Source: Runella sp. CRIBMP
GTDB taxonomy: Bacteria; Bacteroidota; Bacteroidia; Cytophagales; Spirosomataceae
Assembly: GCF_009905605.1 (NCBI RefSeq)
Contig: NZ_JAAAKZ010000008.1
Coordinates: 62,001 to 126,000 of the forward strand
Length of the DNA: 64,000 nucleotides
Reading direction: 5' to 3'
The notes below the pieces were generated by a model that saw only the letters and a list, made by a program, of their open reading frames with translations, was not told the origin of the DNA and did not search any database. Each line of letters opens with the position of its first letter. Positions within the stretch are counted from its first letter, which is position 1. Shown here piece by piece: positions 24,001 through 40,981 of this stretch. The position numbers and the translations under genes were made by a program.

Positions 24001-24199
24001 CGATGGCGGTGGTGGTGGTTTGTTCTACCGTTTGTGCATCTGCTCCGATAAAGTTCCCCGAAATCGTCACAGTAGGTGGGGTCACATCTGGATACTGCGC
24101 GATGGGCAGGGTAGATAATGCAATGAGTCCCACCAACACAATCACAATCGACGAGACGATGGCGGTAATGGGCCTTTTGATGAAAATATCTGCAATCAT
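21023..24199 (-). CDS. RND efflux pump inner-membrane transporter (AcrB-like, HAE1 type)
   Basis: A full-length 1058-residue RND permease starting MIADIFIKRPITAIVSS. It has the twelve-helix plan with two large periplasmic loops; the proton-relay Asp pair is visible in the fourth helix (GIVVDDAIVVVEAVQHNI), and FIPVEDEGRLFV and GLAAKNAILIVEFAKE are characteristic HAE1 segments. These pumps export drugs, dyes, detergents or lipophilic metabolites using the proton gradient. It is the last gene of an operon with an outer-membrane channel and an adaptor upstream (62-bp gap), and a strong terminator follows. No regulator is adjacent. The substrate cannot be predicted. Confidence 0.95.
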   Translation of the reverse strand: MIADIFIKRPITAIVSSIVIVLVGLIALSTLPIAQYPDVTPPTVTISGNFIGADAQTVEQTTTTAIETQVNGVPGMSYMSSTSTSSGQSGVNVVFEVGTDVNIAALDVQNRVSVAEPSLPDAVKRLGVTVRKRQPSIMVVLALYSPKGTHDAQFIGNYANIYLKDALQRVKGVGDIVSRADDFGMRIWLNPDKLASLKMTPADISAALSEQNLQIAAGTVGGNPQPNTQTFEYSVLTNSRLNTKEQFEDIVVRSSPAEGRVVYLRDVARVELGKFDYGVNAFVNGKPAAFILIYQAPGANALETYDGVVNALETMKKTFPKDIDYVMPTETATVVRVSINEVLKTFGEAMILVIIVVFLFLQNWRATLIPILAIPVSLIGTFIFFIPFGFTINTLTLFAFVLAIGIVVDDAIVVVEAVQHNIDHEKLSPKEATAKAMKEISGPVIAIALILAAVFVPVSFVPGIVGRLYQQFAITIAVSVLLSAFVALSLTPALCSTMLRPSKGAADKKNLMEKFFDRFNKWFERLSISYTSGVAKWIKGTPYVMVMMVCLFVGLFFLFKNKPTGFIPVEDEGRLFVTYEMQEATSTTRNIAMIKEIMTRVESIPEVRVVGGLAGLNVLSFSNKSNVGTLFINLHPWAERKGAEHHVQSVIKEIQKRTADIREARVLAIAPPAIPGLGATSGFTFQIQQTTSTDNIQQFEGVARNFLGALTKRPEIGAAFTFFNTRTPSYKIDVDREKTKKLGVSVSEVFSSLSAMLGSNYVNDFNLYGRNFRVVVQADSSFRSSLDKIEKFYVRNREGNMIPLSALVTTKVVENPALISHYNIYRSVEINGTPKPGFSSGQAITALREVAAQTLPAGYGYEFSGMSSEEIKAGDSTTTIFAISIVFVFLFLAALYESWSIPFSVLFAVPIGAFGSILTLTFLPNLSNNIYAQIGLITLIGLAAKNAILIVEFAKERVDGGMELVKATLEAVQLRLRPIIMTSLAFILGVLPLAFASGAAAESRKTIGWTVFGGMLAATSLAIFVVPVLFVLIEKISMGKKKRTENEQKTNTTSTVVE

Positions 24200-24261
24200 T
24201 TGGAAAGATTTTTATATTTGCAATTGTCGATTTCTTATTGAAATAAACAATTGTAAATGAG

Positions 24262-25371
24262 TTATTTGTCCGTTTTAATTAGTGCTCCTTCGCGTAAGTT
24301 TTGGACTCCTTCAACGGCGATTTTTTCACCTTCTTTCAATCCCTCTTTCACAATGATTTTGGTCCCCAACGGTTGGCCCACCACAATTCTCCGCTGACTT
24401 ACTTTGCTGCTATCACCTGCAACGTAGACAAAAAACTCGCCCAATTGCTCAGTTACGGCCTTGTACGGAATCACGACCGATTTGGTTGAGGCGCGGTTCA
24501 GTACGCGCACGGTTCCGGTCATGCCCGCACGCAGTAAATTGTCGGGATTAGGAAAAATCAGTCGCGTTTTGATGGTTCCTGTTTGCGGGTCAACGGCGCG
24601 GTCAAGCAATTGAATTTTGCCAGGATGAGGATAAATATCGGGGCCAAAAGCAAGCGTAAATGTTGAGTCTTTGGAAGCTCTATTTTTAAGTAAGGTCGCA
24701 AACCGATAGATTTCTTTTTGGTCGACGCCAAAATCTACGGCCAGTTGTCCATCAGTCGAGACAGTATTCAGCAGGGTTTGTCCTGCCGAAACCGCTGCGC
24801 CGGGTTTCACCAAAGAGATGCCAATTACACCATCAAATGGAGCGTAGACTTTGGTATATCGTACGCTGGTAGATACCGCCGAAATATTGGCCTTGGCGGC
24901 TTCTGCTTGTTTCTTGGCTACTTCGAGTGCGGCGTCGGCATTGTCAACTAATTGCTTGGCTACGGCATCGTTTTTGTCTAATTCATGGTACCGGTCGGCG
25001 TCTTTCTGGGCTTTGTTGACGTTGGCTTCCTGTACTTTCAGGTTGGCCACGGCCTGCTCATAATTGGCCGAATAAAGTTGCGCATCGATGGAGTATAAAA
25101 GCTGTCCTTTTTTCACCCGTGCCCCATCCTGAAAATGTACCCCCGTAATAAAACCTGTCACCTGCGGGCGCAGTTCAACTTGATTGATGGGCGTAATGCT
25201 GGCGGGGTATTCGTCGTAATAAACGGCGTTGGTAGTGGTGACTTCTTCCAACGTCACGGCCACGGCGGGAGGGGCCTGTTGGGCCGCTTTTTGTTCCTCT
25301 TTTTTATCGCAAGAGGTCAGAAAAACGATGGACAATGCGGCGGTAAAGTAGTGTATGGGATTCGAATACAT
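24262..25371 (-). CDS. RND efflux periplasmic adaptor lipoprotein (AcrA-like)
   Basis: A 369-residue membrane-fusion protein with a lipoprotein signal (MYSNPIHYFTAALSIVFLTSC, lipidated Cys at 21). Then come a barrel-sandwich/lipoyl part (PQVTGFITGVHFQDGARVKKGQLLYSID), a helical hairpin (about 95-160), the returning lipoyl half (VYAPFDGVIGISLVKPGAAVSAGQTL) and the beta-barrel and membrane-proximal domains. It joins the AcrB-like pump to a TolC-like channel. It is encoded between those two genes in the order channel-adaptor-pump, 21 bp behind the channel gene. Confidence 0.95.
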   Translation of the reverse strand: MYSNPIHYFTAALSIVFLTSCDKKEEQKAAQQAPPAVAVTLEEVTTTNAVYYDEYPASITPINQVELRPQVTGFITGVHFQDGARVKKGQLLYSIDAQLYSANYEQAVANLKVQEANVNKAQKDADRYHELDKNDAVAKQLVDNADAALEVAKKQAEAAKANISAVSTSVRYTKVYAPFDGVIGISLVKPGAAVSAGQTLLNTVSTDGQLAVDFGVDQKEIYRFATLLKNRASKDSTFTLAFGPDIYPHPGKIQLLDRAVDPQTGTIKTRLIFPNPDNLLRAGMTGTVRVLNRASTKSVVIPYKAVTEQLGEFFVYVAGDSSKVSQRRIVVGQPLGTKIIVKEGLKEGEKIAVEGVQNLREGALIKTDK

Positions 25372-25392
25372 ATAATTCGGAGATTCAGTTTT

Positions 25393-26748
25393 TTAATAAT
25401 TAAGTTGGCCAAGGGCACGTTGTACGTCAATTTTATTGGAAAGCACTTGATAAAGCGCGTTGTAATAATTGATGCGAGCCAGTCGTAAATCAGTCTCCGA
25501 AGCGATGACCTCGAGGTAGGTTTTGATGCCCGACCGGTATTGCAGTTGAATGATGTCGTAGACTTCGCGCGCCAATTCCATGTTTTCTTTTTGGGTAAGC
25601 AAATTGGTCAAGCTCCCTTTATAACTGCCCAAAGCCCGCACATATTCGGCGTTGACGTTGAGTTGCAGGCGTTTAATGTCCAAATCAATGCGTTTGAGCT
25701 GCCACTCGGCGGTGTTGGTATTAATCTTGCGTTTTCCTCCTTGATAAATAGGAAACGAAAGCGTAATGGCTGCAAATGAATTGGGGAAATTTTTGGAGTA
25801 CAAATCCAAAAACTGATTGTTTTGAAAGTTCAAATTGTAGGCTCCGTTGGCCGCTACCGTAGGTAAATAGCTCCATTTGGTGTATTGATAATTATACTCT
25901 AATAAGCGCTTTTGGGTATTCAGCAACTGATATTCAATGCGGGACGTGTATTCGGCATTTTGGAGGGTATCCAAAAAAAGCTCACGTTCCATTTGCAGGC
26001 TGTCGTACTGAAGATTTAGCTCCTGCGCTTTCGGATACGCCATCAAGGATTTGAGGTGTTCAATTTTTCCTTTCAGAATTTCCTCATTGCCTTTCTTCGA
26101 TGCTTTGGTATTATTGAGCGAAATCAGCGCCCGTTTGTAGTCAATTTTATCGGCAACGCCCGCTTTGTACTGATTTTGCGCATCTTTCAGGCTGCGCTCT
26201 AGCCGCACAATGTCTTCGTTGGCCACGTCGATTTGTTGCTTGGTGGTCAAAACATCATAAAAGGCTTTGGAGACATCGACGGCCAAATCGGTTTTGTTGG
26301 AAGATGTTAGTTGATTGGCCTGCAATCGTACCTCGTTTTGGGTGCGCCGAGCCAAAAGCACGTCGCGGTTAAAGAGTGGTTGCGACACCGTAAACTGCCC
26401 CGCCGAGATATTACTAACACCTAACTTGACGGGATTGCCGCCAATGATGCTGGTTTGGACAATAAAGTTGTGTTGAAGGTTGTAATTGAAGTTGATTTGC
26501 GGATACCAATCAGCGAGTCGGCTTTTGATGTTGTTTTCGGTAATGCGCTCATCAATCACCGATTGTTGAATGGCGGGCTGATTTTTCAGAGCGTATTTCA
26601 CGACCTCTTCTAAGGTGGCTTTTTCCAAGGTTCCGCCGTCGACCGATGCCTGCGATTGTGCCCAAAGCAGGCTGGAAGGCGGAGACAGGAATGTAACGGT
26701 AATCAGCGCTAAAAAAAACTTTTTATCTGATTTTGACCAATAACTCAT
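25393..26748 (-). CDS. TolC-like outer-membrane efflux channel
   Basis: A 451-residue outer-membrane efflux protein with an N-terminal signal peptide (FFLALITVTFLSPPSSLLWAQ). The two repeated halves each contain long helical coiled-coil segments (for instance YALKNQPAIQQSVIDERI and LLNTQKRLLEYNYQYTKW) as in TolC/OprM. It supplies the exit duct of the RND pump encoded behind it. As the first gene of the operon it is preceded by a 513-bp region without a clear regulator. The first Met of the frame gives a slightly charged leader before the hydrophobic core, acceptable for a signal peptide. Confidence 0.9.
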   Translation of the reverse strand: MSYWSKSDKKFFLALITVTFLSPPSSLLWAQSQASVDGGTLEKATLEEVVKYALKNQPAIQQSVIDERITENNIKSRLADWYPQINFNYNLQHNFIVQTSIIGGNPVKLGVSNISAGQFTVSQPLFNRDVLLARRTQNEVRLQANQLTSSNKTDLAVDVSKAFYDVLTTKQQIDVANEDIVRLERSLKDAQNQYKAGVADKIDYKRALISLNNTKASKKGNEEILKGKIEHLKSLMAYPKAQELNLQYDSLQMERELFLDTLQNAEYTSRIEYQLLNTQKRLLEYNYQYTKWSYLPTVAANGAYNLNFQNNQFLDLYSKNFPNSFAAITLSFPIYQGGKRKINTNTAEWQLKRIDLDIKRLQLNVNAEYVRALGSYKGSLTNLLTQKENMELAREVYDIIQLQYRSGIKTYLEVIASETDLRLARINYYNALYQVLSNKIDVQRALGQLNY

Positions 26749-28168: not shown

Positions 28169-28735
28169 TTAAACAGGCTTGATGCGTTGAGTCAGGGTTT
28201 TACCCGTTGCTATTTCAGTTCCTTTTAACTCAATATAAAGAACATTTGGCGACCAAAATGAGCCACCATCGATGCGGATAAATACCCGGCTCAGAACGCA
28301 TTCTTTTTTATTGATTGCGGTATATACCTGATATTGGTTTTGGGCGTCTTTTTTCAACAAAAGCGGTAGTTTAGAATAAGCCACCGAGCGCAATTCGTAG
28401 CGGTCGTTTCCCGTCGACTTTACGTTGATTCCGTAGGCAAATTTTCGTTGAATGTAGTTCAGATCTTTACGCATTCCTCCCTCCGGATAGCGAATCCAAA
28501 ATGCATGAACGGGGTCTTCTGTTTCTAATTTCCCGTTTTTGTCCACATTGATTTCGTAACAAATCGTGTTGGTATTAGGGTCGCGCTGGATATAAAACAG
28601 GAGTCCTTTGATTCCGTTGGGTACGGGAAAGCTCTCGGGGTCGGGGAGTGGTGCTTTATCGGTGCTACTGTTGGGCGTCGAAAACGATAAAAGTAGCGGG
28701 GCAACAAGCAACCACAAAATAATTGAAAGTTTCAT
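28169..28735 (-). CDS. DUF4833-like secreted protein
   Basis: A 188-residue protein with signal peptide (MKLSIILWLLVAPLLLSFS). The body has features I associate with DUF4833: FPVPNGIKGLLFYIQRDPNT, NTICYEINVDKNGKL, VHAFWIRYPEGG and LNYIQRKFAYGI. The family is common in Bacteroidota and its function is unknown; the fold is probably beta-rich and exported. The gene is 26 bp downstream of the PfkB kinase gene on the same strand, so co-transcription is possible, but a link to the lipid genes further upstream is only positional. Confidence 0.7.
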   Translation of the reverse strand: MKLSIILWLLVAPLLLSFSTPNSSTDKAPLPDPESFPVPNGIKGLLFYIQRDPNTNTICYEINVDKNGKLETEDPVHAFWIRYPEGGMRKDLNYIQRKFAYGINVKSTGNDRYELRSVAYSKLPLLLKKDAQNQYQVYTAINKKECVLSRVFIRIDGGSFWSPNVLYIELKGTEIATGKTLTQRIKPV

Positions 28736-28761: not shown

Positions 28762-29697
28762 TTAAACGACCGAAGACCACGCCTCTGCCCATGAAAAAAC
28801 CTTTTCGTACCCCTCATGAGTTCCATAAGCAAGCACTTTTTCAACTTTGGTGAAATCGCCCGAGAAAGGACCAGAAGCTTCGATATTGATGGTAGCCATG
28901 GCTGCCCCAAACTCTCCGGCTTCTTCCACGTCGGCACCGGCTATCTTTTTGGATAAATAGCCCGCCATGTACGTATCGCCGCAACCCGTGGCGTCCACTA
29001 CTTTTGTGGGTGTAAAAGCGGGGATTTTATGAAAGCGATTATCGGTATAAATCACCGAGCCGTGGCTGCCAAGGGTGATGATTACTTCTTTAACGCCCAT
29101 ATCGGCCAAGTATTTGGCACCTTCTTGCACCTTACTTTTTCCTGTCAATACCTCCATTTCAAACTCATTGGCTTTCAGAATGCTCACGTGCGGCAGCGCC
29201 TCTTTTTTGTCGGCCCAGTCTTTGTAAAGCACCTTTTTGTCTTTAACGTACCGCAAATACCCCTGAATATCCAGCGAAACCATGCCTTTGGTGGCGAGTA
29301 GTTTTAATAGTTCCAAGGAGATGTCGTCTGAAAGTAAAGGCCCTAAATGGTAGATTTTGGCGGTAATATCGGGCATGACCGGAACATCAAACGGGGAGGC
29401 TTTTTGCAATACGTTTTGTTCGCGGTGGTTTTGATTTTCGGGGTAAATGTTTTCAAAATACACCGAGTGCTCGCTGGGCAATGCATATACTTCAATACCT
29501 GATTTGCGAAGGTCGGCAACCACTCCCAACTCACTCGTTGCCAAAGCCGTGACCAAAGCATAGTCTAATTGTGCCTTTTGGATGGCTTTGGAAAAATAAA
29601 AAGAAGTGCCTCCCGGCATATATTTGACCGAGTGGGGTGTCACGACTTTATCAAGCGTGATGTGCCCGATGGTGCATATATCGTACATACTCTTCAA
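28762..29697 (-). CDS. PfkB family carbohydrate/nucleoside kinase
   Basis: A 311-residue ribokinase-like enzyme. The N-terminal PGGTSFYFSKAIQ matches the substrate-binding Gly-Gly motif, and DATGCGDTYMAGYL near residues 235-247 is the PfkB signature with the catalytic base Asp at about 241. Family members phosphorylate sugars, nucleosides or cyclitols such as myo-inositol. Position at the end of the lipid-headgroup cluster (129 bp after the HAD gene, same strand) makes a polyol such as inositol or glycerol-like alcohol an attractive but unproven substrate. The start at 29697 (MKSMYDICTIGH) could also be the second Met. Confidence 0.85.
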   Translation of the reverse strand: MKSMYDICTIGHITLDKVVTPHSVKYMPGGTSFYFSKAIQKAQLDYALVTALATSELGVVADLRKSGIEVYALPSEHSVYFENIYPENQNHREQNVLQKASPFDVPVMPDITAKIYHLGPLLSDDISLELLKLLATKGMVSLDIQGYLRYVKDKKVLYKDWADKKEALPHVSILKANEFEMEVLTGKSKVQEGAKYLADMGVKEVIITLGSHGSVIYTDNRFHKIPAFTPTKVVDATGCGDTYMAGYLSKKIAGADVEEAGEFGAAMATINIEASGPFSGDFTKVEKVLAYGTHEGYEKVFSWAEAWSSVV

Positions 29698-29825
29698 TGA
29701 TTTGGTGTCAGTATTTTTGTAAAAATGCGTCGAAGCTAAATCTTAAAAAGTAAGCAATCAGAATGATGAATTTACAATAAAATCATTTAACTACCTATCT
29801 TTTAATTGTTTAACTTCATTGGTGC

Positions 29826-30536
29826 TTAACTTATTAATTTCGTAACCTCCTCAGGTACCAATGCAAAATCATGGATTTCGGCATCGGCGACGGAGTCAGT
29901 TTTGGCAGTTGTTTCTTCCCAACCTTGTACATTTAGCCAGATTGTTTTGCAGCCGATTTCGTGCGCTGGAACAATGTCTTTGCTGTATGAGTCGCCAATG
30001 ACGACGCAGGCTTCGGCGGGCAATTGTAACGCGTCTACGCCGAGTTGATAAATGGCTGGATTAGGCTTTCTTACGCCCACCACGGCCGATTCTACCACGG
30101 CGTTGAAATACGCGGCAATTCCAAAATCATTTAAAACGCTATTGATATTTCCGTAAAAATTAGAAACCATCACCAGCGGATACTGCTTTGCAAGTTGCGC
30201 TAAAACGGGAGCGGCCTGCGCCACCGTTGTTTTGGCAAAAAGATGACAGTCTGTTGCAATCAGCTCAATGCTTTCAGGATTAACCCGAAAACCGTTGTCT
30301 TTTAAAAACTGAAACTGTTGCTCCACCTTGAGCCGTAAGGTATCTAAAAAAGTATGCTCAGGTTTCACAATCGGATGAATCGCCAAGGCTCTCTCCCCAA
30401 ATGAGTACGCTTTTGAAAATGTTTCTTGGTCAATTTGTACCCCGTATTCTTGGTAACTGTTCCACAATACACCGCCCCAATGCAATCCGTTGGTGTCGAT
30501 TGTGCCACCGTAGTCCAGCAAAACTCCTTTTATCAT
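29826..30536 (-). CDS. HAD-superfamily hydrolase with atypical motif I
   Basis: A 236-residue HAD protein with a cap-domain insertion. Motif I is LLDYGGT (residues 6-12): the nucleophile Asp8 is present, but the usual second Asp two positions later, the general acid/base, is Gly10. Motif II (VMVSNFYGN), the motif III Lys in GVRKPNPAIY and motif IV GDSYSKDI are present. HAD enzymes usually dephosphorylate small phosphates. The replaced Asp means it may be slow, use another acid, or have a non-phosphatase role. It lies 44 bp behind the LPG-synthase-like membrane gene in the headgroup cluster, where a lipid-phosphate or polyol-phosphate phosphatase would fit. Confidence 0.85.
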   Translation of the reverse strand: MIKGVLLDYGGTIDTNGLHWGGVLWNSYQEYGVQIDQETFSKAYSFGERALAIHPIVKPEHTFLDTLRLKVEQQFQFLKDNGFRVNPESIELIATDCHLFAKTTVAQAAPVLAQLAKQYPLVMVSNFYGNINSVLNDFGIAAYFNAVVESAVVGVRKPNPAIYQLGVDALQLPAEACVVIGDSYSKDIVPAHEIGCKTIWLNVQGWEETTAKTDSVADAEIHDFALVPEEVTKLIS

Positions 30537-30580
30537 AAACGATTTACTTTAAATAATGGGTGACAGATAAACCAAAAAAA

Positions 30581-31618
30581 TCATAATTTATTTGAAACGG
30601 TTTCCAGCGCAGTTTCTTTGCCCACTGATTGAACGTTTGTACGTTGGAGCAAAAGCAGCCCAATGCCTATCCACACCAACTCCCTGATACGCACCACGAT
30701 ACCGATAAAAAGGCCCGTTGCGGCGGGCATTCCGATGCTCTGCAACGCCAGCGCCAACCCCCCTTCCCGGGTGCCGAGCTGCATCGGAAAGAAAAAAATC
30801 AGGTTGGCAAACAACGAAGAACCTGAGCTAACAATCAGCGATTCTGTGATCGACATATCCAATCCTACGGCCTGGGCCGTAAAGTAAATCTCGGCGCACC
30901 CTACCACCCGGGCCGCAAATTCTAGCCCCAGCGAAGCGTAAAAACGCGGTTTTCGTTCGGCGTAGAGAATGCGGATTTGTTCGTCGATTTCGTGCAATGC
31001 GTCAATTTTTTCGGCCATAAAGCCCTTTACTATTTTATTGACGAAGTACATTTTTTCTAACAATCGAAATGTACTGACCGTGAAGCCGCGTTGGTAGACG
31101 CGAATAAACCAAAAGCCCAGCACCAAACCCACCACCAACATAACGCCACAACCCGCGAGCATCAGCGTACTCAGCGGAACAAAAGCCACGATGAGCACAA
31201 TCGACGCCAACCAAAACAACACGTGCGAAAACATGTGCATCAGGCTGTACAACAACACCGACGACGTGGCCTTGCGCACACCCAGCGCGGGTTTGAGCAA
31301 CATGATGCGGTACGGCTCGCCGCCCAGCGCCACAAATGGCGTAATGTAATTGATAACGTAACCCGTAATTGTCAGTCGAAGCACCGACCAAAAGGAAAGG
31401 TTGCTTGCGGGCAATTGTGGATCTTCAATGATAGCCTTAAAGGCAAAAGCATTCAGAACATAAATCACCAACCAGCTGCCAATGACGGGAATAAACCAAA
31501 AACCCATTTTTTTGATATTGGCCCCAATAACATCAAGCCCCATGCCATAAATCATATAGCCCAGAAAAATGACGCCCAGCACCAAAAATAGGGCTTTGTA
31601 TATCGTCGTACTCTTCAC
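30581..31618 (-). CDS. LPG-synthase-like (UPF0104) integral membrane protein
   Basis: About 345 residues with eight or so membrane helices, matching the flippase-like half of lysylphosphatidylglycerol synthases (MprF N-terminal domain, UPF0104). Examples are the segments GFWFIPVIGSWLVIYVLNAFAFKA, GYVINYITPFVALGGEPYRI, and SGSSLFANLIFFFPMQLGTREGGLAL. The TPFVALGGEPYR and GTREGG motifs are characteristic. The catalytic aminoacyl-transfer domain of MprF is absent, so the likely role is lipid flipping or export. I favour GTG at 31618 (MKSTTIYKALF after initiation), one base behind the upstream stop; a TTG at 31630 would overlap that gene by 11 bp. Tight coupling with the CDP-alcohol phosphatidyltransferase suggests it moves that enzyme's product. 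Confidence 0.85.
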   Translation of the reverse strand: MKSTTIYKALFLVLGVIFLGYMIYGMGLDVIGANIKKMGFWFIPVIGSWLVIYVLNAFAFKAIIEDPQLPASNLSFWSVLRLTITGYVINYITPFVALGGEPYRIMLLKPALGVRKATSSVLLYSLMHMFSHVLFWLASIVLIVAFVPLSTLMLAGCGVMLVVGLVLGFWFIRVYQRGFTVSTFRLLEKMYFVNKIVKGFMAEKIDALHEIDEQIRILYAERKPRFYASLGLEFAARVVGCAEIYFTAQAVGLDMSITESLIVSSGSSLFANLIFFFPMQLGTREGGLALALQSIGMPAATGLFIGIVVRIRELVWIGIGLLLLQRTNVQSVGKETALETVSNKL

Positions 31619-31619
31619 G

Positions 31620-32567
31620 TTAAGACACAATTTTTTGGTAAAAATGACGGCTGACTTTCTCCTGACTCACGCACATGTAAATGAGAATGGGGTTCAGAAT
31701 AAAGATGTCGAATAGAAAATAAATCCAGGCTTGGTCGATAAACAACCACAAAAACAGAAATAAAACCCGCGTGTTGAACTGAATAATATTGGTATATTTC
31801 ATCAGGGGCTTATTTTGTGCTCTAAACTCGGTAATAAGCCATTCGGGTAATCCTGAGCTATATTTTTCGCGTACTACACCCAATAATTTTTGCAGATTGG
31901 GCGAGAAGCTTTCCTGCATTTTGGTATAGTTTAAGTAAAATCTTGCGACCAGTTTCATGCCGAAGTTTTTACCCCACGTAAGCGTGTCGTATTCTTTCTG
32001 CAACTCGCGGCTGTTGTCCAGTTCGCTGCCAGAAGTGCCTTTTATAAAGAACAAATGCACGTTGCGGTAGTAATCGGCCATTGCTGATTGCACCACGTGC
32101 GAAGCCCCCGCTACCACGCCCGGTACCCAAATAAACGCGCTCCAACCTTCGTTTTGGCTCCGTAAACAAATGGCAACGTGAATGGCAATAAACCAAAAGT
32201 CCCCTGCCGCTCCGTCTAAGATGCGTCCTAGTCGGCTCTTGTTGTTGGTCATGCGGGCCAGCTGTCCGTCGGCACTGTCGAGAGAGTTGGCAAAAACCAA
32301 CAACAACATTCCGATAACGTTTATCCACAGTTCTTGGTAATAGAAAAGAATTCCTGCCGCTACGCCAAAAAAGATGCTGACAATGGTAACGGGATTGGGC
32401 GTAATGCCAACTTTGGCGCAAAAAAGGGCAATTTGATAGCCAATGGGCCGATAAAACCAAATATCAATCTGCTCTTCGGTATCGCTTGATTTCAGTGAAT
32501 TTTCAAAAGCACTGCTTTTGGGCTCTTCCTTTTTTTCGGTGGGTATTTTTTTTGTCAAATTTTCCAT
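31620..32567 (-). CDS. CDP-alcohol phosphatidyltransferase family enzyme
   Basis: A 315-residue membrane enzyme with an approximately 35-residue charged N-terminal extension. The family signature is present: D97-x2-D100-G101-x2-A104-R105, then G114-x3-D118. The final Asp follows at 123, a spacing of four residues instead of the usual three. Multiple membrane helices surround it. These enzymes join an alcohol to a CDP-activated lipid, or a CDP-activated alcohol to a lipid alcohol, releasing CMP. Here the upstream coupled genes encode a nucleotidyltransferase and an ATP-grasp enzyme (TGATG overlap at 32567). A CDP-activated headgroup made by the nucleotidyltransferase is therefore plausible, with diacylglycerol or ceramide as acceptor. 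Confidence 0.88.
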   Translation of the reverse strand: MENLTKKIPTEKKEEPKSSAFENSLKSSDTEEQIDIWFYRPIGYQIALFCAKVGITPNPVTIVSIFFGVAAGILFYYQELWINVIGMLLLVFANSLDSADGQLARMTNNKSRLGRILDGAAGDFWFIAIHVAICLRSQNEGWSAFIWVPGVVAGASHVVQSAMADYYRNVHLFFIKGTSGSELDNSRELQKEYDTLTWGKNFGMKLVARFYLNYTKMQESFSPNLQKLLGVVREKYSSGLPEWLITEFRAQNKPLMKYTNIIQFNTRVLFLFLWLFIDQAWIYFLFDIFILNPILIYMCVSQEKVSRHFYQKIVS

Positions 32568-33436
32568 CAGGCAGCTATGGTAAATTGTTGAAAAATGGCT
32601 TGGGCAATCGACTCAGCGGCGTCTTGACGGCACGGAGCGAAGCTTGGCCAGTCGTTGAGGTCAATGATGTGAAACCGTCCGTCTTTTCCCACGATGGCAT
32701 CCCCACCATACACGTGTACATCGAGGGCTTCGGCTGATGCATTGGCGGCTTTGCGGAGCGCATCCTCATCAAAAGGATAGTACAGCGACTTGCCGTTGAT
32801 GTTTTCATAATCGGCGTATTTGTGGTGGTTGTTGGCGTACGGATAAAACCAATAGAAAAAATCGGTGTTGCGTACGGCATAAAACTTCACCAAATCGCCC
32901 ATCAAATGCTCAGAAATGACAGCGTCGGGAATATCCCGGAGCGCGTATTCACGCAATATCTCCCGGGCTTCGTCGGCGCTTGCCGCAAAGGTCACGTCTT
33001 CTTTGTGAATGGCGTGAAAATCACCGCGCTTGATCCAAAACCCTTTGCCGGGAAGTTGCTCAAAAACATCATTTCCAGTGTAGGAAGTGGGCACAATAAA
33101 ACTTTTGGGATATGGAATGCCGTTTTCGACCAGTCCTTTGGTCATATTTGTTCTAAAACATTTTTCGATTCCAAAACCCGAATTGACAACTACTTTTCCC
33201 GCCAATTCCAACTCCTGCAATTTTTTCACTACTTCTTTCTGCCGGGCCATGGTAAAAATAAAACGTTGCTCAATCGTCTGTTTTTGCAGAAACTCATCTT
33301 CGCAACAGATGCTTACCGTGCATCCCATTCGTTGGAGTGCTTGGGCGGTTAATGAAAAAATGGCGTCATCATTTCCGATATGATTGGGGGAAAACTTCTT
33401 GTTTCGGTGTACTCCCAGTAATTCAAATGTATCCAT
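32567..33436 (-). CDS. ATP-grasp-like enzyme of the lipid headgroup operon
   Basis: A 289-residue protein with an ATP-grasp-type layout: an N-terminal alpha/beta domain (to about residue 105), a GFWIKRGDFHAIHKEDV segment as the first nucleotide-binding strand-loop, VISEHLMGDLVKFYAV as the second, and a C-terminal metal-binding region GGDAIVGKDGRFHIIDLNDWP with the Asp/Asn ligands. ATP-grasp enzymes ligate a carboxylate to an amine or other nucleophile through an acyl phosphate, but kinase activity (as in inositol polyphosphate kinases of this fold) is also known. It overlaps by one base with the genes on both sides (TAATG and TGATG), so it almost certainly acts in the same pathway. Substrate unknown. 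Confidence 0.78.
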   Translation of the reverse strand: MDTFELLGVHRNKKFSPNHIGNDDAIFSLTAQALQRMGCTVSICCEDEFLQKQTIEQRFIFTMARQKEVVKKLQELELAGKVVVNSGFGIEKCFRTNMTKGLVENGIPYPKSFIVPTSYTGNDVFEQLPGKGFWIKRGDFHAIHKEDVTFAASADEAREILREYALRDIPDAVISEHLMGDLVKFYAVRNTDFFYWFYPYANNHHKYADYENINGKSLYYPFDEDALRKAANASAEALDVHVYGGDAIVGKDGRFHIIDLNDWPSFAPCRQDAAESIAQAIFQQFTIAA

Positions 33437-34170
33437 TATAAAACAACTTCATGATTTGGTGTCTGCTGCGCGTGGCTCAAAAAAAGCTCGGCAGTGGTAA
33501 TGTCCCTCACGTGGTCTATGTCCACGATTTTTGAAAAGGGAAAAGCTTTGATAATTAACTTATTGTCAATCAATTGGCGTTGAAAATTGCGCATCCGGCT
33601 GGTGCCGCTTTCAATCGCCTGCGTAACGCAATCGAGGGCTTTGTTGCGCAAACAATAAATGCCCCCCGATACAAATGGCGTGTTCAAAGTGTTGGTGTCG
33701 GTAAAAGCCGTGACCAAATGTTGTTCATCGGTTGCCACAAACAAAGGACTTTCGTCATCCACAAAGGTGGTGACGGCCATTAATCCGTCAAGCTCGCGGT
33801 TTTGCTCAAATGCCAGAATATATGACTCAAATTCATCTTCAGTAAATACCGTATCGGTGGTGGTCAGACACAACTCGTCAATGGCGGGATTGGCCTTTAG
33901 CAATTCATAAAAGCTGTGCAATGAACTCGGCGTGGATTTTTTAATGACCCGAACTGGAACCTCATAGGTTGTTTCCGACAAGTGTTTCTCCAGTGCTTCC
34001 GATGTTTCGTTAATGATAATTTGAATGCTTTCGGCCCGATTATTACTGAAAATACCAATCAAACGGTCAATCAATATTTCGCCGTGCAGCGCGACCATCG
34101 GCTTAGGAAGCGTAAACCCTTCCTGCGCCAATCGTGAACCTTCCCCTGCTGCGATGATTGCGTAATTCAT
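33436..34170 (-). CDS. Sugar/alcohol-phosphate nucleotidyltransferase
   Basis: A 244-residue NTP-transferase with the Rossmann-like signature AIIAAGEGSRLAQEGFTLPKPM (start shown in two parts: AAGEGSRL at 7-14 and the LPKPM lysine at about 23). The family activates sugar 1-phosphates or alcohol phosphates (inositol-, glycerol-, choline-phosphate) to NDP derivatives. It lacks the C-terminal left-handed helix domain of GlmU-type enzymes, so it is a simple transferase. It is the first gene of a four-gene overlapping unit ending with the LPG-like membrane protein, and 47 bp behind the DUF5686 gene. A CTP:alcohol-phosphate cytidylyltransferase feeding the CDP-alcohol enzyme is my inference. Confidence 0.82.
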   Translation of the reverse strand: MNYAIIAAGEGSRLAQEGFTLPKPMVALHGEILIDRLIGIFSNNRAESIQIIINETSEALEKHLSETTYEVPVRVIKKSTPSSLHSFYELLKANPAIDELCLTTTDTVFTEDEFESYILAFEQNRELDGLMAVTTFVDDESPLFVATDEQHLVTAFTDTNTLNTPFVSGGIYCLRNKALDCVTQAIESGTSRMRNFQRQLIDNKLIIKAFPFSKIVDIDHVRDITTAELFLSHAQQTPNHEVVL

Positions 34171-34217: not shown

Positions 34218-36779
34218 TTAGAAATCAACCCTAAACCGCGCCCGAATGCCCCACTCGGATACACCCGGATGATTGAGGTAATTAAAACGCTTTACCAAAT
34301 CCAGACGCAATAATTTGAAAATATTGGCTATCCCGACGCTGCCTTCTACGTACGGCGTGCGTCCCAAAGAGTAACTGATGGATTTGTCTTGCTCGTCAAC
34401 TGGAAAGCGAAAAACGGAGGTTTGTTTGTTCGGATTGTTCTCGTCGCGTAGGCCACCTACGAGCGCTTTCAAGCTGACCACCTCTCTGAGTTTTAGTTTT
34501 TTGAGCAATGGTATCTTATTGAAAATGAATCCGTTGAAGTAATATTGTACGTCTACGCTAGCGTAATGGTCACTCACGAACTCAAGAAAATTCATCAAGT
34601 TGTACGAGTTCAATTGGTAGGCGTAGGTCTGGTTGGCGCGGTGAATCATCAGCAACGGAAACGGAATGTTTTTGCCCACAATGTAGCCGCCTTCCGTCGT
34701 GACGTCGGCGTAGCCGTACTGCGAGAAGTAAAAACGTTTTGCAATATTGGCCGTAATGTTGTGGTAGTTGTTTTGGCCCGACAAAAAGCCTTTCACGCCC
34801 ACATTGTAGCGAAGTGTGAAAATAGGTGAGCGGTTGATGAGTGGTGTGCGGTACAGTTTTCCTTGGTAAAACTGCTCGTTGGGCGCGTATCGCAGTTCCA
34901 GACTCAGCTCGGTATTTTTCAACTGTGGTACACTTTGTACGTTGCCTTCATTATCAACGGTTTCATAACGCAGGATGCCCGCGGGGCTTTGATTCCACTG
35001 CGTAAAGCCCACCCGGTAAGAGAAATGGTTGGCTAACTCACGGATGTATTCGATTTTAAAAATGTCATTGTACAGCCAGCGGTTATTGTCGCCGCGTTTG
35101 AAGGACAACAAAAAGTTGTCTTCTTGCACAAACTGCAAGTCTTGTCCAGGAATTTTGGTATCGCGCTGAAAACTGGCCCGTATGTAATGAAACGGAAACT
35201 GGTACACCGATTTATTGTTGAGCGAATACGTACCGCTTAAAAAATACTTCCATTTTTCGTCCTTGAAACCGTAGGCCGCGTAGGTTTCAAAAAAGTAACG
35301 ATTGCTCAAATCAGTGGTGGTTCGGCCGCCAAAACGCAGACGGAATCCTTCCACGGGATTGAAACTGTAAAACGTGTTTACGGGCCCTACTTCTACAAGG
35401 CCGAAGGATTTATAACCAGCCAAAAGCAAGGTTGCGATGTCCATTGTTCGGCGGAAAGACGGGATGGTTTGCAGCGTGTCTACGTTTCTGTAAATATTGC
35501 GCTCTAGCCGGTCCAAGGGTAAGTGCCTCACGTTGTTCCAGTAAGATTCGCCTTTGTTTACGGCCAAAAGCGCGGTCACGTTTTCTTGCGCGGGGCCTTT
35601 ATAAACGCTGTCGGGACGGGCTTGATTGATGGTAAAGTTCTTGAAATTTACCACGCGTTGTCCATAGAGGCCGCCCGATTTATCGCCCAGTGCAAACTCC
35701 ATTCCCAACGTAGTTTTAGCGGGATGGTAGCGACCGTCCGTACCTTTTTCAAACTCCAACTTTGCTTCCAAATCGCGCATGAAGTTGAGGTTGATTTCCT
35801 TATTGACCGTCAGGTAGGCATTCTGAACGCTGTAGTTACCATCTAGGGTCACAAATAGTTTCCCTTCAAAGAGCATATCGGTTTTATTGCGCGGCACAAA
35901 TCCCAACTCAACGAGCCAAGGTGTTTGGGTTTTAACGGTATCGCGAATAAAAAATTTGTAAAACGTCGGTGCCGTGTTGGCAATGGGGCTTAGCAGCAGG
36001 TTGGTGGCAATAGAAATGTCGTTTTTGTAAATGTCTACATCCTCGTACAAACGTCGGAAGTAGGCGTTCAAGCCGTCATTATCAATAAATTTAGAATCAA
36101 ATTCGGCCTTGCGGTCGGCTTCTACCCATTGTTTTTTGGTATAGGGATTTTTGCGAAAATAGACTTTAGAGAGTTTTTCCTGCATGTAAGCGGGCAACAG
36201 ATTTTTGCCGCCCATGCCCGTTGAATCTTGATTGACAAACAAAAACTGGTAGTTCCGAAAAATGCGACGCTCTTTAAAACTGTCGGAAAGGTTGCTCAAC
36301 GACAAGGCGATTTTCTCGTATTGTTCGTATTCTACATAGTCATTGGCCGCCATCTGGTTTTGTTCTTTGTGCTCAATCACCTCCCGGATGAGCTGAACCG
36401 CTGGATTATCTTTGTTTCGATAGCGGCTCGTTTTTCCCCTGACGGTCACTTCCTTCAATTGCAAGGCGTCGACGGCCATCTTTATGTTAATGGTCTGCGC
36501 AATCCCCGGCGTGACGTTTTTCTCGATGCTCAGGTACCCTATATAAGTAAACTTAATGACTGATTTATTGGCGGGTACGGTAAGGCTGTAGCGGCCTTCG
36601 GCATCGGAAGTGCTTCCGATGTTGGTTCCTACTACCTGCACATTTACATAGGGCAGGGTTTCACCCGATTTAGTGTCGGTAATGACGCCTTTGACGGTGG
36701 TTGTTTGGGCAAACGCAACGCCTAACGTCAGACATAAAATTGACAGGAGGTTGGTTATATCTGTGGCTAATTTTTTCAT
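34218..36779 (-). CDS. DUF5686 outer-membrane barrel with carboxypeptidase-regulatory domain
   Basis: About 853 residues: a signal peptide (KKLATDITNLLSILCLTLG, ending FAQ), then a CarboxypepD_reg-like domain (about 28-110: VKGVITDTKSGETLPYVNV, then TYIGYLSIEKNV). A large DUF5686 region of beta strands follows, ending in the aromatic-terminated strand GIRARFRVDF typical of outer-membrane barrels. The TonB box and plug are lacking, so it is not a standard TonB receptor. I placed the start at 36779. Its position inside the sphingolipid/headgroup block (112 bp after the reductase gene, 47 bp before the nucleotidyltransferase gene) suggests a role in placing or using the lipid at the outer membrane, but this is inference. 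Confidence 0.82.
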   Translation of the reverse strand: MKKLATDITNLLSILCLTLGVAFAQTTTVKGVITDTKSGETLPYVNVQVVGTNIGSTSDAEGRYSLTVPANKSVIKFTYIGYLSIEKNVTPGIAQTINIKMAVDALQLKEVTVRGKTSRYRNKDNPAVQLIREVIEHKEQNQMAANDYVEYEQYEKIALSLSNLSDSFKERRIFRNYQFLFVNQDSTGMGGKNLLPAYMQEKLSKVYFRKNPYTKKQWVEADRKAEFDSKFIDNDGLNAYFRRLYEDVDIYKNDISIATNLLLSPIANTAPTFYKFFIRDTVKTQTPWLVELGFVPRNKTDMLFEGKLFVTLDGNYSVQNAYLTVNKEINLNFMRDLEAKLEFEKGTDGRYHPAKTTLGMEFALGDKSGGLYGQRVVNFKNFTINQARPDSVYKGPAQENVTALLAVNKGESYWNNVRHLPLDRLERNIYRNVDTLQTIPSFRRTMDIATLLLAGYKSFGLVEVGPVNTFYSFNPVEGFRLRFGGRTTTDLSNRYFFETYAAYGFKDEKWKYFLSGTYSLNNKSVYQFPFHYIRASFQRDTKIPGQDLQFVQEDNFLLSFKRGDNNRWLYNDIFKIEYIRELANHFSYRVGFTQWNQSPAGILRYETVDNEGNVQSVPQLKNTELSLELRYAPNEQFYQGKLYRTPLINRSPIFTLRYNVGVKGFLSGQNNYHNITANIAKRFYFSQYGYADVTTEGGYIVGKNIPFPLLMIHRANQTYAYQLNSYNLMNFLEFVSDHYASVDVQYYFNGFIFNKIPLLKKLKLREVVSLKALVGGLRDENNPNKQTSVFRFPVDEQDKSISYSLGRTPYVEGSVGIANIFKLLRLDLVKRFNYLNHPGVSEWGIRARFRVDF

Positions 36780-36890
36780 TTTAATGTGGGCTTTTGGCCC
36801 TTTGTTCATCACGACTGTACATTAAATGGGTCCAATCAAGTTTCTTTTTAGGAAAGAAAACTTCGGTAAAGGTACTTTTGGTAGATTGCT

Positions 36891-37882
36891 TTAAATCCAG
36901 TCATTGGCTTTGTACCACTGCCAGGTTTCGGCAATTCCTTTGTTTAAATTATAATGAGGCTGGTACTGTAAATCCCGTTTGGCGGCTTCGATACTGCAAA
37001 ACCAATTCGGCGCGGTCAGCTCTTTTACCTTTTCACGGTTTATTACGGGGGCTACCGACGAAAACGTGGCGCCCAATTCCATGATATTGGCGGCTAGTTT
37101 CAACACGCCCACGGGCAAATGAATCCGACGCGGTTTTTTGCCGCTGGCTGCCTTAAAGGCGTCGGCCAAAGCGTATCGGTCGTAGGCAAATCCATCTGAG
37201 ATGTTGTAGACCTGACGTTCATCTTGGCCTTTGAGCAAGGCCGCCACCGTCACTTCTGCCAAATCTTTGACGTAGACAAAACTCAGTCGCTGGGGTTCCT
37301 TGCCGATGTAAGCGTCAAGGCCTTGATTGAGGGTTTTGAAAAGAATGAACAAATCTTTTTCCCTTGGTCCGTACACGGCAGTGGGCCGTATGGTGGTCAG
37401 CGGTAAAGCTGTTAATTTTTCCAACATCTTCTCTGCCAACAGTTTACTTTTTCCATAACTCGTAATGGGCAATGGTAAAGTGTTCTCCGTGATGGACTGC
37501 TCTTCGGCATACGATAGAGGACCCAGCGCCGCCAAACTGCTCATAAACAAAAACCGTTTTAGCGGAATATCAGCTTCTAGTGCCGCTTCGGCCAGCAAAC
37601 GCGTATAATCGGCATTGATTAGGTTGTAGGCCTGGGTGTTTTTGGCTCGTGTGGCTCCCGCCGCGTGAATAATGTAGCTGTAATCCCCTTCCTTCAACAG
37701 TTTTTTCAGTGCCTCTTTATCACTTAACGCTGGATAGACAAATACAGGATTGAATTTTCTTAGGTGATTGACATTACTGGAACGGCGGACGGCGGCGTGA
37801 ACTTCCAAGCCCTCTTTTTGGGCGGCTTCTATCAGATGATAACCGATAAAACCGCTTGCTCCCGTAATCAATACCCTGCTGC

Positions 37883-37886
<4 letters not shown>
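36891..37886 (-). CDS. NAD(P)-dependent epimerase/dehydratase, probable ceramide reductase (CerR)
   Basis: A 331-residue extended short-chain dehydrogenase. The NAD(P)-binding motif GASGFIG lies at residues 9-15, SS at 116-117, and the catalytic Y144-x3-K148 in TSYGKSK. By itself this is generic. Context gives the specific call: it overlaps by ATGA with a GNAT-like acyltransferase that in turn overlaps spt by ATGA. In the characterised bacterial ceramide pathway (serine palmitoyltransferase, bCerS, CerR), CerR is an epimerase-like reductase that reduces the 3-keto group after N-acylation. The gene order here mirrors that reaction order. Alternative: a sugar epimerase for surface polysaccharides, less likely given the coupling. 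Confidence 0.8.
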
Positions 37887-40261
<2,375 letters not shown>

Positions 40262-40357: not shown

Positions 40358-40981
40358 CTAACTAACAGTCTCAGAAATAAAAAGATATTCGGTAATCATA
40401 CTGATAATTAGATTCTTATGGTTTTCGGCAAATGCATTAAATTCCTCTTCTGATGCATTGTACATTTTCATATTCATATTCTTACCCACAAAAACAAACT
40501 GCAAACTCCCCATAATCAAAGGCATCAAATGCTCCACACTTATATTGCGCATTCGGCCGTTTATGATCTCTTCTTCAATTTGGTTTGATAGTGTAACATG
40601 TAATAATTCCTTAAACCTTGATAACTCCGGCAAAAGCCGTTCGGGGTCCCGATGGATTTCGGTCATCAAAAACAACACTAAGCTCGGCTCCTTCTTCATC
40701 ATTTGAAAATCTTCTTCAATAAGCTCAATCAGCTTTTCACGGATGCTGATTGGTTTCTCAAAGATTTTCAGCGTGTTTTTACAGTAATAACTGAACAAAT
40801 CTCTAAAAATCTCAAAAAAAAGTTTCTCTTTACTTCTGAAATAATAGTTCGTAAGCGCAATGTTCATGCTGGCTGCCTCCGCTATGTCTCTTGCGGTGGT
40901 GCCTGCATATCCCTTTTTTAAAAAAACAGACTTCGCTGCTTCTTTAATTTTTTCTTCACTTGATTGAGTAATGCACGTCAC
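40358..40981 (-). CDS. TetR family regulator, probable controller of the sphingolipid operon
   Basis: A 207-residue TetR-type protein. The N-terminal helix-turn-helix is clear (KIKEAAKSVFLKKGYAGTTA, RDIAEAASMNIALTNYYFRSKEKLF), and the C-terminal helical ligand-binding domain follows (about 60-200). TetR proteins bind palindromic operators and release them on binding a small, often hydrophobic, ligand. Its gene ends 151 bp upstream of spt on the same strand; a perfect dyad in that gap and another nested dyad upstream of its own start are candidate operators. A fatty acyl-CoA, long-chain base or ceramide would be a sensible effector, but the sequence does not show it. Confidence 0.88.
   Translation of the reverse strand: MTCITQSSEEKIKEAAKSVFLKKGYAGTTARDIAEAASMNIALTNYYFRSKEKLFFEIFRDLFSYYCKNTLKIFEKPISIREKLIELIEEDFQMMKKEPSLVLFLMTEIHRDPERLLPELSRFKELLHVTLSNQIEEEIINGRMRNISVEHLMPLIMGSLQFVFVGKNMNMKMYNASEEEFNAFAENHKNLIISMITEYLFISETVS

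What the first reader, a model, noticed from the sequence alone, without database searches (positions are those of the whole stretch)
28762..34170. Undescribed lipid headgroup module attached to the ceramide operon
Seen: nucleotidyltransferase, ATP-grasp enzyme, CDP-alcohol phosphatidyltransferase and LPG-synthase-like membrane protein are joined by 1-base overlaps or near contact, then a HAD protein and a PfkB kinase follow on the same strand. Known: these families activate, condense, flip and dephosphorylate polar lipid headgroups. Inference: together they make a CDP-activated headgroup (PfkB and nucleotidyltransferase), attach it to ceramide or diacylglycerol, modify it by ATP-dependent ligation and flip it outward. 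I know of no described pathway with this exact gene set.
Basis: inference. Interest (0 to 1): 0.82.

Follow-up and report, generated by a model that had tools for sequence, protein, structure and literature searches.

The report
Inositol headgroup genes beside ceramide genes
Next to its ceramide-making genes this bacterium carries a gene set that most likely builds an inositol-phosphate headgroup through CDP-inositol; the core was predicted in gut relatives in 2022, but two kinases in it, one of which seems to replace the usual inositol-making enzyme, add something new.

Summary
The gene array is real but not undescribed: its core fits the putative "alternative inositol lipid cluster" of Bacteroides vulgatus (Heaver 2022, PMC9246714). 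Inositol: in 395 sampled genomes of the phylum, 14 of 15 with the ATP-grasp hit the myo-inositol-phosphate synthase (MIPS) model, against 49 of 380 without. The nucleotidyltransferase profile's best solved match is an inositol-1-phosphate cytidylyltransferase. The PfkB keeps four inositol contacts of TM0415. PfkB occurs in 14 of 14 tested module genomes without intact MIPS, and in 2 of 9 with it. Ceramide: elsewhere a PIP-synthase module occupies the same slot of the ceramide operon. This genome's MIPS is truncated, so PfkB probably phosphorylates salvaged inositol. Beyond Heaver's text: PfkB in place of MIPS; an ATP-grasp in 79 of 80 loci, inositol-phosphate kinase or ligase, undecided; a transferase lacking the fourth catalytic Asp; a HAD lacking its second. 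Catalytic steps and the lipid are inferred. New variant of a known kind.

The parts
39001..40251 (-). serine palmitoyltransferase (spt), first gene of the ceramide part
   Evidence: NCBIfam NF047600 736.7 bits, cut-off 640
37883..39004 (-). GNAT-like protein, presumed bacterial ceramide synthase (role recalled, not tested)
   Evidence: weak Acetyltransf_1 hit, E 7.7e-5; no NCBIfam hit; kept beside spt
36891..37886 (-). NAD-dependent epimerase/dehydratase-family protein, presumed ceramide reductase CerR (role recalled, not tested)
   Evidence: Pfam Epimerase; kept beside spt in Runella, Dyadobacter, Parapedobacter loci
34218..36812 (-). CarboxypepD_reg + DUF5686 protein; also precedes the PIP-synthase module in other ceramide operons
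33436..34170 (-). NTPt: candidate CTP:inositol-phosphate cytidylyltransferase
   Evidence: profile A4 best PDB match 4JD0, E 1.1e-10, profile 5-222; R13, K23, D106 invariant in 18 of 18, corresponding to active-site R16, K26, D112 of T. maritima IMPCT (passages of PMC12275187)
32567..33436 (-). ATP-grasp protein; candidate inositol-phosphate kinase (ITPK-like), ligase not excluded
   Evidence: model, Foldseek, profile searches, DxNDWPSF motif
31620..32567 (-). CDP-alcohol phosphotransferase with Gly at the fourth motif Asp; candidate CDP-inositol:ceramide/diacylglycerol transferase
   Evidence: Pfam PF01066; motif counts; Foldseek AF2299 and PIP synthases, best E 4.2e-3
30581..31630 (-). LPG_synthase_TM membrane protein, possible flippase (role inferred only)
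   Evidence: Pfam PF03706; NCBIfam HpnL far below its cut-off
29826..30536 (-). HAD-superfamily protein, motif I D-Y-G-G-T (second Asp absent)
28762..29697 (-). PfkB/ribokinase-family kinase, predicted ATP-dependent myo-inositol kinase
   Evidence: best PDB match TM0415, E 2.3e-26; D, N, Q, R contacts and GCGD; stands in for MIPS
28169..28735 (-). DUF4833 protein closing the block; also follows the PIP synthase in L134
   Evidence: Pfam PF16117 in window, L054 and L134

Best explanation
The block makes phosphoinositol lipids, here most likely ceramide phosphoinositol, by a CDP-inositol route. Proposed steps: PfkB phosphorylates salvaged myo-inositol with ATP, in place of MIPS; the ATP-grasp, acting as a kinase, adds a further phosphate; the nucleotidyltransferase makes CDP-(phospho)inositol from CTP; the CDP-alcohol enzyme transfers phospho-inositol to the hydroxyl of ceramide (or diacylglycerol); HAD removes the extra phosphate; LPG-TM and DUF5686 move the lipid outward. 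Supported by sequence and genome comparison: inositol as the substrate, the PfkB and nucleotidyltransferase assignments, and exchange with a PIP-synthase module in ceramide operons. Inferred: the lipid acceptor, the order of steps, and the roles of ATP-grasp, HAD, LPG-TM and DUF5686.
For: MIPS model (PF01658) hits 14 of 15 ATP-grasp-bearing genomes against 49 of 380 others, Fisher p 2.4e-11, genomes not independent; one of the 14 is the window's own truncated copy. MIPS lies within 52 of 80 named loci and 11 of 18 unnamed ones, a few of which are the same places. NTPt: best PDB match is inositol-1-P cytidylyltransferase 4JD0. PfkB: best PDB match TM0415, a PPi-dependent myo-inositol kinase (PMC5931981 passages); four contact motifs in 17 of 17 PfkB loci, 16 genomes. 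Of 23 distinct module genomes compared, 14 lack an intact MIPS and all 14 have PfkB at E <= 1e-15; 9 have MIPS and 2 of these have PfkB; Fisher p 1.5e-4, not independent. One of the 9, G527, showed no CDP-alcohol gene in its 20 kb. Parapedobacter L054 has spt-GNAT-CerR-MIPS-DUF5686-NTPt-ATPgrasp-CDPalcohol-LPGTM-HAD-PfkB-DUF4833 in one run. Slot exchange: all seven fetched loci with spt and MIPS together (L133-L139) have a different CDP-alcohol gene just after DUF5686, six seen by tblastn at 25-27% identity, L138's; the two scored, L134 and L138, are above the BT1523 PIP-synthase cut-off. Fusions: NTPt-ATPgrasp in L083, L117, L123 and NTPt-ATPgrasp-CDPalcohol in L119. BT1523-type PIP synthase and PI-dihydroceramide synthase models find nothing in 14 of 14 module genomes tested, and hit both comparison genomes, the second model below its cut-off. 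PMC9246714 reports PI-dihydroceramide from B. vulgatus and Prevotella veroralis, which it credits with the alternative cluster, and cites ceramide phosphoinositol from Sphingobacterium spiritivorum (passages); other Sphingobacterium species here carry the module with MIPS.
Against: No lipid data for this organism. 10 of 15 ATP-grasp-bearing genomes have no spt above cut-off, so the module often serves another acceptor. The CDP-alcohol enzyme lacks the fourth motif Asp in all 79 named module copies that could be scored and HAD lacks the second Asp of motif I in 76 of 76, so neither the transfer nor the dephosphorylation is standard chemistry. ATP-grasp undecided: Foldseek's first hits are ligases, the deeper profile puts the ligase PsnB first, and the window protein scores 12.3 bits against the ITPK Pfam model, cut-off 23. 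NTPt: CpgD, which makes CDP-glycerate, has the same best structural match and the same three residues. Heaver et al. report either cluster absent or infrequent in the genus Sphingobacterium, with moderate homology in Sphingobacteria, which sits uneasily with the Sphingobacterium loci found here.
Confidence: 0.75

Rival explanations
1. The ATP-grasp is a ligase that attaches an amino acid or other carboxylate to the headgroup, so the final lipid is a modified phospho-inositol lipid (closest to the first reader's view). This concerns the ATP-grasp step only.
For: Foldseek's first ranks are ArgX and D-Ala or D-Lac ligases, with the first ITPK at rank 11; with profile A3 PsnB scores E 2.3e-5, just ahead of an ITPK (1z2n) at 3.6e-5; RimK and ITPK Pfam models each match 3 of 23 members at about the same E-value; weak MptN/RimK NCBIfam hits.
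Against: Profile A1's best PDB match is ITPK4 at 3.7e-6, PsnB 3e-5. The motif D-x-N-D-[WF]-P-S-[FY] is in 78 of 80 ATP-grasp stretches scanned; the printed ITPK alignments read DLNYLPSF and DVNVFPSY, PsnB ELNASAMF. PI-dihydroceramide is what Heaver et al. report from B. vulgatus and P. veroralis; the passages seen mention no acylated form.
Confidence: 0.3
2. The acceptor is diacylglycerol and the product phosphatidylinositol; adjacency to spt in Runella/Dyadobacter is incidental or reflects later transfer to ceramide by an enzyme not identified.
For: 10 of 15 ATP-grasp-bearing genomes lack spt above the cut-off; spt is close in 11 of 80 named loci; Heaver et al. propose diacylglycerol as the first acceptor.
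Against: The window, nine named Runella/Dyadobacter loci and Parapedobacter have spt at the head of the same run, and one MAG locus (L096) has it within 10 kb; the PI-dihydroceramide synthase model finds nothing in the five Runella/Dyadobacter G genomes or R. zeae and R. defluvii, though that model is narrow (no hit in any of its 14 named controls).
Confidence: 0.25
3. The headgroup is another phospho-alcohol, for example phosphoglycerate as activated by Caulobacter CpgD, a cytidylyltransferase of the same fold that serves ceramide.
For: CpgD makes CDP-glycerate for ceramide diphosphoglycerate and its best structural match is the same 4JD0 (PMC12275187, passages).
Against: MIPS association, PfkB in place of MIPS, and inositol contacts in PfkB.
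Confidence: 0.06
4. The block decorates a surface polysaccharide or makes a soluble inositol phosphodiester rather than a lipid.
For: Heaver et al. found minor inositol in the capsule of B. thetaiotaomicron; NTPt and CDP-alcohol enzyme resemble the two halves of the di-inositol-phosphate enzyme.
Against: Shared slot with the PIP-synthase module in ceramide operons; no glycosyltransferase among the Pfam hits of the block.
Confidence: 0.05

Closest known systems
Putative alternative inositol lipid cluster of Bacteroides vulgatus / Prevotella (Heaver et al. 2022, PMC9246714; passages read)
   Same: NTP transferase, CDP-alcohol phosphatidyltransferase and HAD, with an LPG-synthase-like gene and a carboxypeptidase-regulatory-domain protein in the vicinity. 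BVU_RS13095/13105/13115 leave one tag each for the ATP-grasp and LPG-TM that lie between them in the Bacteroides loci here (inferred, assuming steps of 5).
   Different: No MIPS nearby and a PfkB kinase instead; the block is joined to spt-GNAT-CerR. 'ATP-grasp' and 'PfkB' occur 0 times in the paper's main text, and it proposes HAD as the PI-dihydroceramide synthase.
B. thetaiotaomicron BT1522-1526 inositol phosphoceramide operon (PMC8791184, PMC9246714; passages read)
   Same: Presumed same final lipid; PIP-synthase homologues occupy the same place in ceramide operons of other Bacteroidota.
   Different: Uses CDP-diacylglycerol + inositol phosphate and a PAP2-type ceramide transferase; neither model hits the window's genome.
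Thermotoga TM0415 and Thermococcus MI3K_TK myo-inositol kinases (PMC5931981; passages read)
   Same: Ribokinase family; TM0415's inositol contacts D11, N78, Q141, R145 and catalytic D234 are kept in the window PfkB.
   Different: The PPi-specific R229 and R232 are Ala and Cys in the window, so ATP is the expected donor; TM0415's true substrate is itself left open in that paper.
Plant ITPK4 (7PUP; PMC7614388, start of abstract and passages read)
   Same: ATP-grasp inositol-phosphate kinase with D-x-N-x-x-P-S-F motif, joined to an N-terminal HAD-like domain whose motif I also lacks the second Asp.
   Different: Weak sequence similarity; the bacterial HAD is a separate protein; ITPK4 does not use inositol monophosphates.
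Caulobacter ceramide phosphoglycerate genes (CpgA-D; PMC12275187, passages read)
   Same: A cytidylyltransferase of the same fold making a CDP-headgroup for a ceramide lipid.
   Different: Substrate phosphoglycerate; the pathway includes a ceramide kinase.

Membership tests
Heaver alternative inositol lipid cluster | NTP transferase + CDP-alcohol phosphatidyltransferase + HAD encoded together | tested here: met
Heaver alternative inositol lipid cluster | MIPS homologue in the vicinity | tested here: not met
   In the window's genome the only MIPS relative lies on another contig and matches only residues 124-431 of a 432-residue MIPS; in named relatives MIPS is within 52 of 80 loci. Heaver et al. 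themselves note exceptions
Heaver alternative inositol lipid cluster | no BT1522/BT1523-type genes in the genome | tested here: met
   NF052609 and NF052561 without a hit in G000; BT1525 not tested
Heaver alternative inositol lipid cluster | direct homology to BVU_RS13095, 13105, 13115 | not tested
   no named B. vulgatus record was fetched; inferred from Bacteroides loci such as L095, L090, L121, L126
Heaver alternative inositol lipid cluster | product PI-dihydroceramide | not testable with these tools
   needs lipidomics
myo-inositol kinases of the ribokinase family | inositol contacts D11, N78, Q141, R145 (TM0415 numbering) and the GXGD Asp | tested here: met
   alignment; by motif in 17 of 17 loci from 16 genomes
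myo-inositol kinases of the ribokinase family | phosphorylation of myo-inositol | not testable with these tools
   needs assay
PPi-dependent ribokinase-family kinases | RXGRGD motif | tested here: not met
   window reads ATGCGD
inositol-1-phosphate cytidylyltransferases | active-site Arg, Lys, Asp (R16, K26, D112 in T. maritima IMPCT) | tested here: met
   R13, K23, D106 invariant in 18 of 18, aligned; also kept in CpgD, so not specific
inositol-1-phosphate cytidylyltransferases | CTP and inositol phosphate as substrates | not testable with these tools
   needs assay
ITPK inositol-phosphate kinases | Pfam PF05770 above curated cut-off | tested here: not met
   12.3 bits against cut-off 23 for the window protein; 3 of 23 family members match at E <= 1
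ITPK inositol-phosphate kinases | ATP-grasp fold with D-x-N metal motif | tested here: met
   that D-x-N (not E-x-N) marks kinases is a reading of the printed alignments, partly recalled
CDP-alcohol phosphotransferases | DxxDGxxARx8GxxxDxxxD with all four Asp | tested here: not met
   Gly at the fourth Asp in 79 of 79 named module copies scored and 17 of 17 in A2; six other CDP-alcohol enzymes checked keep it. Pfam PF01066 membership is above its cut-off
HAD phosphatases | motif I DxDx[TV] | tested here: not met
   D-[YF]-G-[GA]-T in 76 of 76 named and 17 of 17 unnamed copies; first Asp kept, GDxxxxD in 74 of 76
BT1522-1526 inositol phosphoceramide operon | BT1523-type PIP synthase and PI-dihydroceramide synthase | tested here: not met

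The most novel reading that the evidence does not exclude
A bacterial inositol-lipid route that runs through a bis-phosphorylated inositol: an ITPK-like ATP-grasp kinase turns inositol monophosphate (from MIPS or from PfkB) into a bisphosphate, for example the mirror-symmetric Ins(1,3)P2, which would make the two possible precursors Ins(1)P and Ins(3)P equivalent; the cytidylyltransferase activates one phosphate, a CDP-alcohol enzyme without the usual fourth Asp transfers it to ceramide, and the HAD removes or moves the other. This would put a kinase of the eukaryotic inositol-phosphate type at the centre of a bacterial lipid pathway, with a phosphoinositide-like intermediate.
Probability: 0.3. 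Interest if true: 0.75.

Novelty: new variant of a known kind. Interest (0 to 1): 0.5.

Why it matters
How B. vulgatus, Prevotella, Parabacteroides and Sphingobacterium would make inositol lipids is open: the 2022 proposal names three enzymes that its authors call unconfirmed, and a 2023 review still calls the route predicted but not fully characterised. The data here add two further enzymes with concrete candidate substrates, show a salvage-type kinase where MIPS is missing, and show that this module and a PIP-synthase module take the same place in ceramide operons. They also point at unusual active sites in two of the enzymes. Each step becomes a simple enzyme assay.

Tried and rejected
Rejected: heptose-type activation (PfkB + HAD + nucleotidyltransferase), considered because of HldE-like hits among the weak NCBIfam matches; dropped for the MIPS association and inositol contacts. 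Rejected: an own-genome MIPS feeding the pathway; the only copy is truncated, and no N-terminal part was found by tblastn in its 20 kb or by PF07994 in the genome. Rejected: weak PF01658 hits in three Dyadobacter genomes (G127, G139 = G532, G533) as MIPS; no tblastn match to B. ihuae MIPS and no PF07994 hit. Undecided: ITPK against ligase for the ATP-grasp; the fold search does not separate them, and the deeper profile lowered the ITPK lead. The model of the CDP-alcohol enzyme (mean pLDDT 91) gave weak Foldseek E-values, AF2299 and PIP synthases ahead of choline-phosphotransferases; it does not settle the acceptor.

Rows dropped or limits of the counts: one SPT-like hit of 33% (L086) was not counted among the 11; 30 of 80 named loci are shorter than 18 kb, so missing neighbours may be contig ends; the L068 CDP-alcohol copy could not be scored; L096 holds a second, distant CDP-alcohol enzyme that keeps the fourth Asp and is not a module copy; two of 80 ATP-grasp stretches did not show the motif. 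G139 and G532 have identical coordinates and were counted once. In the MIPS/PfkB comparison MIPS of G539, G540, G541 is taken from their loci, that of G486, G527, G216, G362, G275, and G527 is counted as a module genome though no CDP-alcohol gene was seen in its 20 kb. No search term for PfkB in this context was used in the literature searches.

Full report
WHAT IS THERE. The window lies on a 222-kb contig of a 7.13-Mb genome. The six genes are confirmed at the stated places, minus strand, with 1-base overlaps between the first three and an 11-base overlap to the fourth. They follow spt, a GNAT-like gene, a CerR-like gene and a DUF5686 gene, and are followed after 26 bases by a DUF4833 gene. 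The nearest named relatives are Runella and Dyadobacter (L048-L053, L063, L069, L097). All nine keep spt, GNAT, CerR, DUF5686, NTPt, ATP-grasp and CDP-alcohol gene in order; eight also show LPG-TM, HAD and PfkB, and the ninth, L050, ends at the CDP-alcohol gene.

DISTRIBUTION. In 148 genomes of the order, 5 (the window's own included) hold the CDP-alcohol gene at E <= 1e-10, all in the window's family. In 395 genomes of the phylum, 15 hold the ATP-grasp at E <= 1e-6. In these 80: ATP-grasp 79, HAD 76, NTPt 72, MIPS 52, LPG-TM 35, DUF5686 16, PfkB 11, of which L089 is a distant, opposite-strand kinase and L070 only 30% alike; spt at 55% identity or more 11. In the 50 loci of 18 kb or more: ATP-grasp 50, HAD 49, NTPt 48, MIPS 32. 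Three loci fuse NTPt with ATP-grasp and one fuses NTPt, ATP-grasp and CDP-alcohol enzyme.

INOSITOL. Of the 15 ATP-grasp genomes 14 hit the MIPS model PF01658, against 49 of the 380 others (Fisher p 2.4e-11; genomes are related, so this is a guide only). The exception, G010, is in the window's genus. The window's own hit, one of the 14, lies on another contig and matches only residues 124-431 of a 432-residue MIPS; tblastn finds no N-terminal part in the 20 kb around it, and the genome's only PF07994 match begins at profile position 135. Of 23 distinct module genomes compared, 14 lack an intact MIPS and all 14 carry a PfkB homologue at E <= 1e-15; 9 have MIPS and 2 of these carry PfkB (p 1.5e-4, not independent). 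The 14 are eleven Runella/Dyadobacter-type genomes and three from Parabacteroides and Massilibacteroides, where PfkB lies outside the module. In G486 PfkB and MIPS are divergent neighbours. The PfkB's best solved match is TM0415, which uses PPi to phosphorylate myo-inositol in vitro, though its authors leave its true acceptor open (PMC5931981, passages). D11, N78, Q141, R145 and the catalytic Asp of TM0415 are matched in the window protein and, by motif, in 17 of 17 loci from 16 genomes. The PPi-specific arginines are not; the motif is GCGD, and that paper lists Cys among the small residues of ATP-dependent members.

NUCLEOTIDYLTRANSFERASE. The family profile's best PDB match is 4JD0 (E 1.1e-10), which PMC12275187 identifies as T. 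maritima inositol-1-phosphate cytidylyltransferase (passages). Another inositol enzyme, 2xme, matches along its length at 2.2e-6, but several sugar nucleotidyltransferases match better than that. CpgD, which makes CDP-glycerate for a Caulobacter ceramide lipid, has the same best structural match and the same three residues, so this evidence alone does not prove inositol.

CERAMIDE AND THE MODULE EXCHANGE. Parapedobacter luteus (L054) has spt, GNAT, CerR, MIPS, DUF5686, the six window genes and DUF4833 in one run, then a fatty-acid hydroxylase. I fetched regions around MIPS of 13 genomes without the ATP-grasp. Seven (L133-L139) hold spt and MIPS together; in all seven a different CDP-alcohol gene lies just after DUF5686, in six by tblastn at 25-27% identity to the query family and in L138. 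The two of the seven that were scored, L134 and L138, are above the cut-off of the BT1523 PIP-synthase family. L134 continues with DUF4833, a fatty-acid hydroxylase and a PAP2 protein that hits the PI-dihydroceramide-synthase model below its cut-off. So two different modules sit in one slot. Neither model hits any of 14 module genomes tested, while both comparison genomes hit; the PI-dihydroceramide-synthase model also missed all 14 named controls of the search, so it is narrow. Against a fixed ceramide role: 10 of 15 ATP-grasp genomes have no spt above cut-off. Presence of spt is still enriched, 5 of 15 against 13 of 380 (p 2.5e-4, not independent).

ATP-GRASP. The model is confident. Foldseek ranks ArgX and D-Ala ligases first with an ITPK at rank 11. 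Profile A1 ranks ITPK4 first (3.7e-6), then PsnB (3e-5) and the ITPK 1z2n (6.4e-4); profile A3 gives PsnB 2.3e-5, 1z2n 3.6e-5, ITPK4 7.2e-5. DxND[WF]PS[FY] was found in 78 of 80 stretches; the aligned ITPKs read DLNYLPSF and DVNVFPSY, PsnB ELNASAMF. The window protein is under the ITPK Pfam cut-off, and RimK and ITPK models match equally few members. I call it ITPK-like in motif but do not file it as an ITPK. Since PI-dihydroceramide and ceramide phosphoinositol are the lipids reported from bacteria with this route or genus (PMC9246714, passages), a transient change such as a phosphate fits better than a permanent one; this is inference.

UNUSUAL ACTIVE SITES. The CDP-alcohol enzyme keeps three of the four motif Asp; the fourth is Gly in all 79 named module copies scored, followed by Asp (72), Asn (6) or Glu (1), and Gly in 17 of 17 of alignment A2. 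Six other CDP-alcohol enzymes checked keep it. That this Asp is the general base is recalled knowledge. HAD motif I is D-[YF]-G-[GA]-T in 76 of 76, so the second Asp, usually the acid/base of HAD phosphatases (recalled), is missing. PMC7614388 reports absence of the second Asp in the HAD domain of plant ITPK4 and notes that this need not abolish activity (passages). A plain phosphatase role for HAD is therefore not secure.

LITERATURE. The core gene set is in PMC9246714 (passages); a 2023 review calls the route predicted but not fully characterised (PMC10191378, passages), and a 2025 review mentions a variant form in Prevotella (PMC12482443, passages). Searches combining ATP-grasp with inositol-lipid terms listed no paper that by its title or abstract start deals with an ATP-grasp in this route; PfkB was not searched for, only looked up in PMC9246714 (0 occurrences). 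The library lacks most subscription journals.

MECHANISM AND VERDICT. Shown by comparison: gene order and its conservation; MIPS association; PfkB where MIPS is missing; exchange with a PIP-synthase module. Inferred: each catalytic step and the lipid. The finding is real, largely anticipated, and extended here by two kinases and two unusual active sites.

Noticed in passing
An amino-inositol lipid is a possible reading.
   Followed up: partly
L046:9522-10460 (own genome C3): MIPS relative lacking its N-terminal NAD-binding part, beside an ORF that looks by eye like a LacI-type regulator piece; looks like a decayed gene.
   Followed up: yes
window 34218-36812 and 28169-28735: DUF5686 and DUF4833 proteins accompany both types of inositol module in ceramide operons (L054, L134); they may serve lipid export.
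   Followed up: partly
window 21023-26748: By eye, RND efflux genes (AcrB-like, membrane fusion, TolC-like) lie downstream of the block, and a TetR-like gene (40358-40981) upstream of spt; a TolC-like ORF also stands before spt in L134.
   Followed up: no
L168, L169: In two Parabacteroides-type genomes the unlinked PfkB stands next to an opposite-strand ORF of about 400 aa that looks by eye like the same transporter, a candidate for inositol uptake.
   Followed up: no
L070:2757-3776: A Bacteroidales MAG has a distant PfkB (30% identity) with a QGYLR stretch right after HAD, a possible independent acquisition.
   Followed up: no
L040 (G527): NTPt and ATP-grasp occur together without a CDP-alcohol gene in the 20 kb fetched.
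   Followed up: no
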